From the NCBI GenBank assembly GCA_002794105.1, contig PHFL01000026.1:1-64000 (forward strand): a stretch of 64,000 nt of DNA. The letters run 5' to 3'. Positions 50,557-53,705 of the stretch are shown piece after piece (the first letter of the stretch is position 1; every line of letters starts with the position of its first letter). A model generated the notes under the pieces. It was given only the letters and a program-made list of their open reading frames with translations. It made no database searches and was not told where the DNA came from. Source of the DNA: Candidatus Thermochlorobacter aerophilus (lineage in GTDB: Bacteria; Bacteroidota; Chlorobiia; Chlorobiales; Thermochlorobacteraceae). The translations under genes and the position numbers were made by a program.

Positions 50557-50957
50557 GGGGATGACAGGTTTCGACAGGGCAGGCAGAGAAATCGGTTGCA
50601 CTCCGAGTTTCCGCACAGATAGACTCGTTAAAGAAGTCTGTGCAAAAGTAAATGCGGAAGATTATTCTTACGCAATGGCTGCCTAATTAACGCAAGGTTA
50701 ATTAGTCATGCCACGTTTGCAAGCTGAAGCGCCTACACGGAGGCTTGCAAATGTCATAAAATTTGCGCTTGAGCTCTGCTCGCGCGGTAGGCTTCACTTG
50801 CATTGTTCTCAACGGTGCAAGTGAATATGCAGTTGAGATAGCAACATGAACTGTGTCAATGCAGTCGCATGTTGCGAACCTTAAACATTGACGATGAGTG
50901 TGGGAACCTATTTCGATGCTGCTCTGGACGCGGGTTCGAGTCCCGCCATCTCCACCA
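50557..50957 (+). ncRNA. ssrA: tmRNA
   Basis: Rescues stalled ribosomes with SmpB. The 5' end GGGGATGACAGGTTTCGACA and the 3' end with a T-arm (GGGTTCGAGTCCC) and CATCTCC acceptor strand closing to A-CCA (50955-50957) define a one-piece tmRNA of 401 nt. The CCA is encoded. The resume codon is GCA at 50642 and the tag reads AKVNAEDYSYAMAA, ending TAA at 50684-50686. The last eight residues agree with the Chlorobium tag ADDYSYAMAA as I remember it. A further TAA follows closely. Confidence 0.97.
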
Positions 50958-50991
50958 TTCATGCTAACAAATCGAGTGGGCTTTACTGCGC

Positions 50992-51173
50992 TGTCATGCC
51001 GAGCGATTCTTCTCTGTCATGCTGAGCATCAGCGAGGAATCCACTCATGGATGCTTCGCTTAGCATGACAATTGCGCAAGCGTGGATGCTCTGCTGCGCT
51101 CAGCATGACAAGGCTGTCATTCCGAATGCAGTGAGAAATCCACTATGGATACTTCACTGCGTTTAGTATGATA
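50992..51173 (+). repeat. Decayed TGTCATGCTGAGC palindromic repeat tract
   Basis: The 309 bp between tmRNA and the HIT gene hold no ORF but several related short words. TGTCATGCCGAGC (50992), TGTCATGCTGAGC (51015) and TGTCATTCCGAATGC (51115) are direct copies; GCTTAGCATGACA (51058-51070) and GCTCAGCATGACA (51098-51110) are inverted copies. Spans 51015-51070 and 51115-51173 each form an imperfect palindrome with AGGAATCC/AGAAATCC and GGATGCTTC/GGATACTTC inside. This looks like remains of a REP- or MITE-type element. Confidence 0.75.
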
Positions 51174-51266
51174 AGCTGCTACACTTGCTATACATTTAGC
51201 ACTACGTGCGAATGTACACCATGCACGAACCGTTATGACCCACTAAACGGCAACCAATCACTGTAG

Positions 51267-52169
51267 ATGGAACAGCTATTTTCACCTTGGCGCTCCCAAT
51301 ACATAGAATCCTTTAAGGGAGACCGAAAGACAGACCGCAAATCTATCTTCGCTGACATCCCACCTGAAGAAGACGAGGCTCGCATGGTGATATATCGTGC
51401 CAAGACAAGTTTCATCATCATGAATCTCTACCCCTACAATGCTGGTCACGTAATGATTGTGCCTTACAAGCAAACTCCGAATTTTTCCGACCTCGATAGC
51501 GATACACGCCTCGAGATTATGAACCTAATTGATCTTTCCATGCGCGCCCTGACCAAAGTACTTTCGCCACATGGCTTCAATGTAGGCTTAAACTTGGGGT
51601 CAGTAGCAGGCGGCAGCGTAGACTCGCACATTCACTTTCATGTGGTGCCGCGCTGGCATGGCGATACCAACTTTATGCCCGTTATCGCCGATACAAAAGT
51701 CATCAGCAACGACATGCGCGCCCTCTACTACAAGCTCCGTGATGCCATACACCAGATACTTAACGCTCCAAATCAAATGACTGCCGAAGAATTGGTTTCT
51801 GCCCTTAAAGAGGTTTCAAAAGACCTCCTAATGCCCAGCGAATCCGACTATCCCTTCGAGATTTTCCGATGGGAAAACGCCATGCCCACCATAGACGAAG
51901 TCCTCACCCGCGCCGGATACGCTGCCGACACGCCTGTAGAAAGCGTCGAGCTTGACTACCTTTTTCGTAACCTATGCGAAGCCCAAGAATGGCATGATGA
52001 CGCACAAAAAGCACAAGCCGCAAAATTCCGCCAATTTGCCGACCTGATGAAGTCGCATCTGAAAGGCTTACAGGTCTATCGCATCGGCACGGTTGAAATT
52101 GATGTTTATGCTGTGGGTAAAATCGGTAAAGATGTGGTCGGCTTTAAGACCAAAATGATTGAGACCTGA
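51267..52169 (+). CDS. HIT-family nucleotide hydrolase fused to NuiA-like domain
   Basis: 300 residues. Residues 1-165 match HIT proteins of the Ap4A phosphorylase type: LFSPWRSQYIESF, NLYPYNAGHVMIVPY, GFNVGLNLGSVAGGSVDSH and the histidine triad HIHFHVVPRW (from residue 121), then GDTNFM. The CxxC zinc pair of many relatives is replaced by SIFA. Residues about 170-300 are unlike HIT and resemble the nuclease A inhibitor fold NuiA (LLMPSESDYPFEIFRW, LKGLQVYRIGTVEIDVYAVGK, VGFKTKMIET). A fusion of dinucleoside polyphosphate hydrolysis and a NuiA-like module is unusual. A small hairpin (52171-52183) follows the stop. Confidence 0.82.
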   Translation: MEQLFSPWRSQYIESFKGDRKTDRKSIFADIPPEEDEARMVIYRAKTSFIIMNLYPYNAGHVMIVPYKQTPNFSDLDSDTRLEIMNLIDLSMRALTKVLSPHGFNVGLNLGSVAGGSVDSHIHFHVVPRWHGDTNFMPVIADTKVISNDMRALYYKLRDAIHQILNAPNQMTAEELVSALKEVSKDLLMPSESDYPFEIFRWENAMPTIDEVLTRAGYAADTPVESVELDYLFRNLCEAQEWHDDAQKAQAAKFRQFADLMKSHLKGLQVYRIGTVEIDVYAVGKIGKDVVGFKTKMIET

Positions 52170-52431
52170 CGGCATAGGATGCCACCGCTATTTTCCTCCA
52201 AACGCGCGGAACTTTTTGCTCTTTTCTTTACCTCTTACTTTTTGAACACTGCTACTCCCTGTTCTTAGGTTTTCCTTAGGTCAGTTATTTATCTTTTGGT
52301 GCAGTGTGGGTGTAACATTGTTTCCTCTGTCTTAACTCATGATTTGAAACCCGCACAAGGCACGAAAGCCCCGGACATGATTTTCCCAATGTTCTTTCAA
52401 TAGTAAAGTCAACAAGTGTTCATATGTGGTC

Positions 52432-53705
52432 ATGGACAGATATTGCCCTATTCCGTCGCCTACTGATTCTGATACGCTTGCTTGTCTTAGCGTTCTTGTC
52501 AAAATTCAGCATAACTTATTGGAATGCCACGATTCAGAAACGCTTTTCGCTTCACTTCTGCCCGACATCCGGCTGGCTGCCTGTACAAGCTATGCCTACT
52601 TTTTCAGAAATGTGCCACTCTTTGATGGGCAGCCGACCTACTCACTTGTCGCTGAATCTCATCTGCCTAATTTGCCCCCACGCAAAGACCATCCCAACTT
52701 TGCGCTCTTGCCGCACGCTCACTTGCCGAACTGGACAGCGACTTTGATGAATCACGGTCTTGTTTTCGGCACGCCAAACGATTTTGCTGGCGAAGAGCGA
52801 TTTTTTATGTCGCTGCATGGCATTCACTCCATTTTGCTTGTGCCTGTCATTGCGGGCAAGCAGTTCTTGGGCTTTTTGGGTATTGACGATTGTGTAGAAG
52901 AACGAAAGTGGTCCGAGGCTGATAAGGCACTCTTGCAGAATGTTGCCTTTGCGCTGGCTCATGCGCTTTTGCGGTTGCAGACTACCCAGAACTTGCAGCG
53001 CGCCTGCCAAGAAAAGACGGAACTGATGGAGATTTTGGCTCACGACCTTAAAAATCCGCTATCAGCTATTTCGCTCAGCGTAGATACCCTTCTTCGCAAG
53101 CATGACAGAATTTCAAGCGAGCAACTTGAAAAGCGGCTTTTTCAAATTAAGGAGTTGGTGCATAGAATGACAGACATCTGCCATCAGATGCTTAGGGAGA
53201 GCATTTGTCTTCCTCTGAATCTGGTTTCACGGCCTTGCACCCCGAGCCGCTTGGCATTGCGAATTTGATTGAGACCCTTGTGGAAGCGCTGCAACTTCAG
53301 GCAGCTGCCAAAAATTTGCAGTTGATGGTTGAAGCAAGCAAAAGCGTTCCCAAAGCGTTTGCCGACAGGATTGCAGTTTTACAGATTTTGGAGAATCTGA
53401 TTTCCAATGCCATCAAGTTTTCGCCCTTTGGGAAAAGAATTTGGATACGGCTGCGTGCGCATCATCAGCATGTGCGCATTGAAGTTGCTGACGAGGGTCC
53501 GGGCATCAAGCCAGAGGAGATGAAACGACTTTTTCAAAAGCGCATGCGGCTTTCTGCACAGCCAACGGGCGGCGAGTCATCAACGGGCTACGGGCTTTGG
53601 ATTTGCAAGACTTTGGTCAATGCCATGTGCGGTCGCATTTGGTGTGAGAGCACCGAAGGTCAAGGCGCAACTTTCATTGTAGAGTTACCAGTGTTTCATG
53701 ATTGA
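52432..53705 (+). pseudogene. GAF-domain histidine kinase split by a frameshift
   Basis: Two reading frames together make one sensor kinase. The first (52432 to a stop at 53268) has a GAF domain (LFASLLPDIRLAACTSY to FLGFLGIDD) and a HisKA helix with the phospho-acceptor His in MEILAHDLKNPLSAISLSVD. The second frame, open from 53196 to 53705, carries the ATPase domain (ILENLISNAIKFSP, VADEGPGIKPEEM, STGYGLWICKTLV). A -1 shift near 53195-53205 would join MLRE to HLSSSESG. Without it the kinase lacks ATP binding. No slippery heptamer is seen, so this is either a mutation or a sequence error. Confidence 0.8.

What the first reader, a model, noticed from the sequence alone, without database searches (positions are those of the whole stretch)
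51267..52169. HIT hydrolase fused to a NuiA-like domain
The C-terminal 130 residues do not belong to HIT proteins and carry SESDYP, LKGLQVYRIG and VGFKT blocks that recall the cyanobacterial nuclease A inhibitor NuiA. Fusing a dinucleoside polyphosphate or adenylate hydrolase to a nuclease-inhibitor-like module suggests a link between nucleotide signalling and nuclease control, or that NuiA-like domains have a wider role.
Basis: partly seen in the sequence, partly recalled or inferred. Interest (0 to 1): 0.55.

Follow-up and report, generated by a model that had tools for sequence, protein, structure and literature searches.

The report
Housekeeping enzyme carrying a nuclease inhibitor
A common nucleotide-cleaving enzyme has been joined end to end with a protein that blocks DNA- and RNA-cutting enzymes, and bacteria have made this kind of join at least three separate times, probably to keep the cell safe from its own exported nuclease.

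Summary
The ORF at 51267-52169 is real: a 300-aa protein with a HIT domain (best solved relatives: mycobacterial Ap4A phosphorylase) and, at residues 171-300, a full-length NuiA domain (Pfam PF07924, E 1e-42; 2o3b chain B, E 6e-29; model Z 15.3). The fusion is in 3 of 3 genomes of the window's genus. In the nearest other genus the two genes overlap at ATGA, and the fused genes keep that ATGA as a fossil. NuiA's Glu24 and its free C-terminal Thr135, which I recall as contacts in the nuclease active site, are kept. 72 of 74 NuiA-bearing genomes tested also encode a NucA-type nuclease. The wider survey found a second, independent HIT-NuiA fusion on a different HIT branch, genus-wide in what is very probably Hymenobacter (single-clade tree rejected, p 3.6e-5). 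It also found a third NuiA fusion, to chorismate synthase, which argues against a HIT-specific signalling link. The common rule is NuiA at the C-terminus of a housekeeping enzyme. Best reading: each domain keeps its own job, and the enzyme is a constitutive carrier for a self-protecting nuclease inhibitor. New variant of a known kind; no activity has been tested.

The parts
51267..52169 (+). HIT-NuiA fusion gene, 300 aa
   Evidence: in one frame in 3 of 3 genomes of the genus
51267..51761 (+). HIT moiety (residues 1-165), Ap4A-phosphorylase-like branch
   Evidence: PF01230; 6af2/3ano E 5e-38 and 1e-36; model Z 16.6 to 3ano_B
51627..51647 (+). histidine triad HIHFHVV (residues 121-127)
   Evidence: H121, H123, H125 nearly invariant in A3; a triad in 40 of 40 distinct fused proteins
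51720..51776 (+). short linker and helix between the domains (residues 152-170)
   Evidence: junction alignment; helix 150-166 in the model
51777..51780 (+). relict ATGA: former NuiA start codon (Met171) kept in frame; it is the stop/start overlap in the sister genus
51777..52166 (+). NuiA domain (residues 171-300)
51840..51842 (+). Glu192, equivalent to Glu24 of Anabaena NuiA
   Evidence: alignment column conserved in 73 of 74 rows; its role in NucA binding is recalled
52164..52166 (+). Thr300, the free C-terminal residue, equivalent to Thr135 of Anabaena NuiA
   Evidence: last residue in 74 of 74 rows; its metal-bridging role is recalled
50557..50957 (+). tmRNA gene directly upstream (context)
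   Evidence: same order in the G001, G002 and G003 loci

Best explanation
The protein is a bifunctional fusion made by joining two overlapping genes. The N-terminal HIT domain is the genome's only copy of its HIT branch and most likely still does that branch's housekeeping (di)nucleotide chemistry. The C-terminal NuiA domain most likely binds the active site of the genome's own NucA-type (PF01223) lipoprotein nuclease while the nuclease is still in the cytoplasm, so that stray or unexported nuclease cannot cut the cell's DNA and RNA. The HIT enzyme acts as an always-made, soluble, probably oligomeric carrier. NuiA can be carried only at a C-terminus, because its own last residue (Thr) has to enter the nuclease. 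Shown here: both domains, their conservation, the gene order before fusion, co-occurrence with the nuclease, and repeated independent fusions. Inferred: nuclease inhibition, HIT activity, oligomeric state, and the benefit of the carrier.
For: NuiA profile, sequence and fold. Glu24 in 73 of 74 and terminal Thr135 in 74 of 74 aligned NuiA domains, 40 of them fused. The HIT triad is kept in 40 of 40 distinct fused proteins. Both domains are under purifying selection in the genus, dN/dS 0.03-0.08 where it could be estimated, with synonymous change near saturation. The genome has two PF01230 hits, of which only the fused one is of this branch, and one PF01223 nuclease whose N-terminus reads as a lipoprotein signal (by eye). 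All 22 NuiA genomes of a 394-genome phylum sample have PF01223, against 143 of 394 overall: hypergeometric 7e-11 by genome, 7e-5 by genus. In a second set, 50 of 52 NuiA genomes against 9 of 19 NuiA-less ones, p 1e-5. NuiA lies next to a nuclease gene in 12 of 14 standalone loci of the Hymenobacter-like family and in 7 of 8 cyanobacterial plasmids read. A nuclease lies near the second HIT-NuiA fusion in 11 of 11 loci read. The sister genus has HIT and NuiA as separate genes overlapping at ATGA, and the fused genes keep Met171 and ATGA. NuiA is fused C-terminally to HIT twice and to chorismate synthase once.
Against: In the window genome the nuclease is on another contig (C22, against C34), so there is no local linkage. 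Two of 74 NuiA genomes tested, G694 and G769, have no PF01223 hit. HIT is the partner in two of the three fusions, more than random partner choice would give by a rough estimate, so a HIT-specific benefit is not excluded. Glu24 is Asp in one fused protein (L167), and one standalone NuiA ends in Ser (G714). Gln74, another contact I recall, is not conserved. No activity was measured.
Confidence: 0.7

Rival explanations
1. The fusion is a regulatory device: nucleotide binding or turnover at the HIT site (Ap4A, AMP or nuclease products) changes the NuiA domain's hold on the nuclease, or nuclease binding at the C-terminus changes HIT activity. Nucleotide stress signalling and nuclease control are then truly coupled.
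For: HIT-NuiA fusion arose twice on two HIT branches. In HinT proteins, deleting or swapping the C-terminal loop changes activity and specificity (PMC7157772, passage), and NuiA is attached just there.
Against: A third NuiA fusion has chorismate synthase as partner. The Hymenobacter-like linkers are long and variable, 47-84 aa between the profile hits, which suggests tethering rather than a tight allosteric joint. NuiA works alone in most lineages.
Confidence: 0.15
2. The fusion is a neutral by-product. Two overlapping, translationally coupled genes ran together by a small frame change, and both domains work as before with no gain.
For: The ATGA overlap in G003 and the fossil ATGA in the fused genes show exactly this route.
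Against: The second fusion is kept in one frame in 69 of 71 genomes of a large genus, and three separate fusions persist. This does not exclude neutrality, because splitting again may be hard.
Confidence: 0.1
3. The C-terminal domain keeps the NuiA fold but no longer inhibits nucleases; it serves as an adaptor or dimerisation module for the HIT enzyme.
For: No nuclease gene is next to it in the window genome; Gln74 is not conserved.
Against: Glu24 and the strictly terminal Thr are kept, the nuclease is nearly always in the genome, and in the parallel fusion it lies near by in 11 of 11 loci.
Confidence: 0.04
4. Assembly or frame artefact joining two genes.
For: G000 is a draft of 80 contigs with 12% estimated contamination.
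Against: The same single frame occurs in G001 and G002, which are cleaner drafts, with a different linker sequence in each.
Confidence: 0.01

Closest known systems
NuiA, nuclease A inhibitor of Anabaena (PF07924; PDB 2o3b chain B, 1j57, 1ktu)
   Same: Full-length domain match, about 40% identity, same fold, equivalent of Glu24, terminal Thr135.
   Different: Here it is fused behind a HIT enzyme and lies on a different contig from the nuclease gene.
Mycobacterial HIT-type Ap4A phosphorylase (Rv2613c; PDB 3ano, 3wo5, 6af2)
   Same: Closest solved relatives of the HIT half; histidine triad and fold shared.
   Different: The curated NCBIfam equivalog cut-off is not reached (165.3 of 290 bits); extra C-terminal NuiA domain.
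HinT-like HIT-NuiA fusion of genus g50 and g175 (very probably Hymenobacter and a sister genus)
   Same: HIT at the N-terminus, NuiA at the C-terminus with free Thr, PF01223 nuclease in the genome.
   Different: Other HIT branch, greA-linked locus, long low-complexity linker, separate origin.
Chorismate synthase-NuiA fusion (G722)
   Same: Housekeeping enzyme with a C-terminal NuiA domain ending in Thr.
   Different: Unrelated enzyme partner; seen in one genome.
Other HIT fusions, e.g. Nit-Fhit (1ems)
   Same: A HIT enzyme joined to another domain.
   Different: In Nit-Fhit the partner is a nitrilase-type enzyme (recalled), not an inhibitor.

Membership tests
NuiA (PF07924) | Profile match above the curated cut-off over the whole domain | tested here: met
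   142.8 bits against 22.1; positions 2-130 of 130
NuiA (PF07924) | NuiA fold | tested here: met
   2o3b_B Z 15.3, rmsd 2.9, 130 aligned; Foldseek E 1e-9
NuiA (PF07924) | Glu24 and free C-terminal Thr135 (roles recalled, not read) | tested here: met
   E192 and T300 in the window; 73 of 74 and 74 of 74 rows
NuiA (PF07924) | A NucA-type nuclease in the same genome | tested here: met
   one PF01223 hit in G000, E 3e-53
NuiA (PF07924) | Gene next to the nuclease gene, as in Anabaena-type plasmids (common, not defining) | tested here: not met
   nuclease on C22, fusion on C34; common but not universal in the family
NuiA (PF07924) | Inhibits the nuclease | not testable with these tools
   needs protein biochemistry
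HIT superfamily (PF01230) | HIT profile and HxHxHxx triad | tested here: met
   52.7 bits against 21.5; HIHFHVV
HIT Ap4A phosphorylase / ATP adenylyltransferase | Curated equivalog score (NF052622) | tested here: not met
   165.3 bits against a cut-off of 290; an actinobacterial model by its name, so called only Ap4A-phosphorylase-like
HIT Ap4A phosphorylase / ATP adenylyltransferase | Ap4A phosphorolysis | not testable with these tools
   needs an enzyme assay
Independent convergent fusion | Fused NuiA domains do not form one clade | tested here: met
   AU test p 3.6e-5, two changes on the tree
Independent convergent fusion | HIT partners belong to different HIT branches | tested here: met
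   split with SH-aLRT 100 around the Ap4A-like rows (quick tree)

The most novel reading that the evidence does not exclude
HIT hydrolases and NuiA inhibitors were fused twice on separate HIT branches because their activities are coupled: the HIT domain senses or clears nucleotides (Ap4A, AMP, or products of nuclease leakage) and thereby tunes how tightly the tethered NuiA domain holds the cell's own nuclease, giving a nucleotide-gated self-immunity switch.
Probability: 0.15. Interest if true: 0.75.

Novelty: new variant of a known kind. Interest (0 to 1): 0.5.

Why it matters
NuiA is known from few studies, mostly as a stand-alone cyanobacterial inhibitor. The survey shows it as a common partner of NucA-type nucleases in Bacteroidota. 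It also shows it being attached repeatedly to housekeeping enzymes, always at their C-terminus. That gives a clear rule (the inhibitor's last residue must stay free), a recorded route of gene fusion (ATGA overlap, then one frame), and a directly testable question: is a housekeeping enzyme merely a carrier for a self-immunity domain, or is the nuclease block controlled by the enzyme's nucleotide chemistry?

Tried and rejected
An extra N-terminal beta-type domain of the nuclease (called NUCN here) at first seemed to accompany only fused NuiA. A profile search of 78 genomes found it also in genomes with stand-alone NuiA (for example G003, G004, G005, G528, G530, G537, G553), so that idea was dropped.

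A phage origin was tested. NuiA had no match in 50,697 phage records at E 0.01, and none of 9 candidate stretches in the viral contigs held a relative. The HIT half does match some phage records, which says nothing about the fusion.

In one search my text pattern for Glu24 was badly written and gave 14 of 40. It is not used; the printed rows show the Glu, and the alignment count (39 of 40 fused rows, one Asp) stands.

Paper searches listed no paper on a HIT-NuiA fusion. One search found no paper holding PF07924, NuiA-like, NuiA domain, nuclease A inhibitor-like or NuiA family in the held library. Subscription papers are mostly not held, so this does not show that the fusion is unpublished, and domain databases may well list it.

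Not tested either: whether chorismate synthase has a second copy in G722, and the oligomeric state of the fusions.

Full report
What is there. The window holds a 300-codon ORF at 51267-52169 on the + strand. Pfam finds HIT at residues 40-130 (E 7e-14) and NuiA at residues 175-300 (E 9.7e-42, profile positions 2-130 of 130). Against solved structures the HIT half is closest to mycobacterial Ap4A phosphorylases (6af2, E 5e-38; 3ano, E 1e-36), and the C-terminal half matches the Anabaena NuiA itself (2o3b chain B and 1j57, E about 6e-29). An AlphaFold2 model (mean pLDDT 75, pTM 0.58) superposes on 3ano_B over residues 7-168 (Z 16.6, rmsd 3.5) and on 2o3b_B over residues 169-300 (Z 15.3, rmsd 2.9, 130 aligned). 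The model says little about how the two domains sit relative to each other.

Where it comes from. Two relatives in the same family have contigs of the same length as named records: G003 is Candidatus Thermochlorobacteriaceae bacterium GBChlB and G004 is another Candidatus Thermochlorobacteriaceae MAG. Of 61 relatives searched, including the window's own genome, 9 have NuiA: 8 of 9 genomes of the family and one genome of another family; none of the 49 genomes of family f4 (Chlorobiaceae-like) has it. The fusion is in all three genomes of the window's genus (G000, G001, G002).

How the fusion arose. In G003 the HIT and NuiA genes are neighbours and overlap by ATGA: the NuiA start codon overlaps the HIT stop codon. 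In G004, of a third genus, they are about 72 kb apart. In the three fused genes the alignment shows the former NuiA initiator Met (Met171 in the window) and the ATGA letters still in place, now read in the HIT frame. The route is thus separate genes, then overlapping genes, then one frame. In the window genus and G003 the HIT gene follows the tmRNA gene. Both halves are under purifying selection: dN/dS 0.03-0.08 where it could be computed, synonymous sites near saturation.

A second, independent fusion. A phylum-wide sample of 394 genomes has NuiA in 22. Three of these, from genus g50, also carry HIT in front of NuiA. The genus is very probably Hymenobacter: the DNA of one locus matched only Hymenobacter plasmids, 3 of 3 records; this is an inference. 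All 120 genomes of that genus searched have NuiA. HIT and NuiA hits lie in one open frame in 69 of 71 genomes searched for HIT; G509 and G451 show a broken frame. The fused gene was read in 31 of 31 g50 loci and in 8 of 8 of the sister genus g175. By the PF01230 search no second strong HIT (E under 1e-10) is present in 65 of 71 genomes (counted by eye from the table). Here the HIT is a HinT-like branch; in 11 of 11 loci read with flanks it follows greA. In the HIT tree the window's Ap4A-like branch and this branch are set apart (SH-aLRT 100, quick tree with some long branches). In the NuiA tree the fused state needs two changes, and one fused clade is rejected (p 3.6e-5; 9 of the 31 g50 rows used).

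A third fusion with another partner. In a 291-genome sample of an order, one further long frame turned up (G722): chorismate synthase (PF01264, E 3e-145) followed by NuiA (E 3e-46). It is seen in one genome, in one frame. This result speaks against a link special to HIT.

What NuiA does here. Across 74 aligned NuiA domains, 40 fused and 34 not, Ser23 and the very last residue Thr135 are invariant and Glu24 is kept in 73; Gln74 is not conserved. From memory of the NucA-NuiA structure papers (not held), Glu24 and the C-terminal Thr135 contact the nuclease active site, with Thr135 bridging the metal. A title naming a metal ion bridge is in a reference list seen. One stand-alone NuiA outside that set ends in Ser (G714). 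NuiA in Anabaena binds NucA with pKd 11.49 (PMC5374557, passage), competes with DNA (PMC5758888, passage), and was used to protect cells from leaky NucA in an engineered system (PMC4890671, passages). A free last residue explains why NuiA is always the C-terminal part.

The likely target. The window genome has one PF01223 nuclease, 504 aa, on another contig; its start reads like a lipoprotein signal and it has the DRGH motif (by eye; motif meaning recalled). In the phylum sample all 22 NuiA genomes have PF01223 against 143 of 394 overall: 7e-11 by genome and 7e-5 by genus, kinship not otherwise corrected. In a second set 50 of 52 NuiA genomes have it (misses G694 and G769) against 9 of 19 without NuiA. 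NuiA lies beside a nuclease gene in 12 of 14 stand-alone loci of the Hymenobacter-like family, in G010, and in 7 of 8 cyanobacterial plasmids read out of 24 records matched. A nuclease lies about 0.6-10 kb from the second fusion in 11 of 11 loci.

Mechanism. The best-supported reading is a housekeeping HIT enzyme that carries a self-protecting nuclease inhibitor. Shown: domains, conserved residues, fusion route, co-occurrence, repeated C-terminal fusion. Inferred: inhibition, retained HIT activity, oligomer, benefit. HIT being the partner in two of three fusions is more than random choice of partner would give by a rough estimate, but HIT proteins may simply be small, constantly made and tolerant of C-terminal additions. 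A nucleotide-gated version remains possible: HinT activity is sensitive to its C-terminal loop (PMC7157772, passage), and that is where NuiA is attached.

Novelty. Both halves are known families, so this is a new variant of a known kind. No paper on it was listed. The interest lies in the repeated fusion and its rule, not in a new family.

Noticed in passing
window 50557-50957: tmRNA gene directly upstream of the fusion; same order in G001, G002 and G003 loci (L013, L011, L012), not in L074, L021, L027 or L045.
   Followed up: partly
window 50986-51174: Imperfect direct and inverted repeats around TGTCATGCTGAGC between the tmRNA and the fusion gene.
   Followed up: no
window 52426-53705: A histidine kinase-like gene lies in two overlapping frames (280 and 166 aa), while G002 has one 420-aa ORF (L011 4088-5350): a frameshift or a decaying gene in the window genome. 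Its class is read from the sequence by eye.
   Followed up: no
L250 3618-5117 (G722): Chorismate synthase fused to a C-terminal NuiA domain, a third independent NuiA fusion.
   Followed up: yes
L109, L107, L108, L132-L134, L206-L211: NucA-type nucleases with an extra conserved N-terminal domain of about 150 aa; the two copies tested had no clear Pfam match.
   Followed up: partly
L253 (G714) 1937-2536: Stand-alone NuiA ending in Ser instead of Thr, the only such case among the rows read.
   Followed up: no
G509 and G451: Two g50 genomes in which the HIT-NuiA frame is broken: sequencing error or real decay.
   Followed up: no
G006 and G007: No PF01230 hit at all in these two relatives, although G004 of the same genus has two; G007 is 84% complete, G006 95%.
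   Followed up: no
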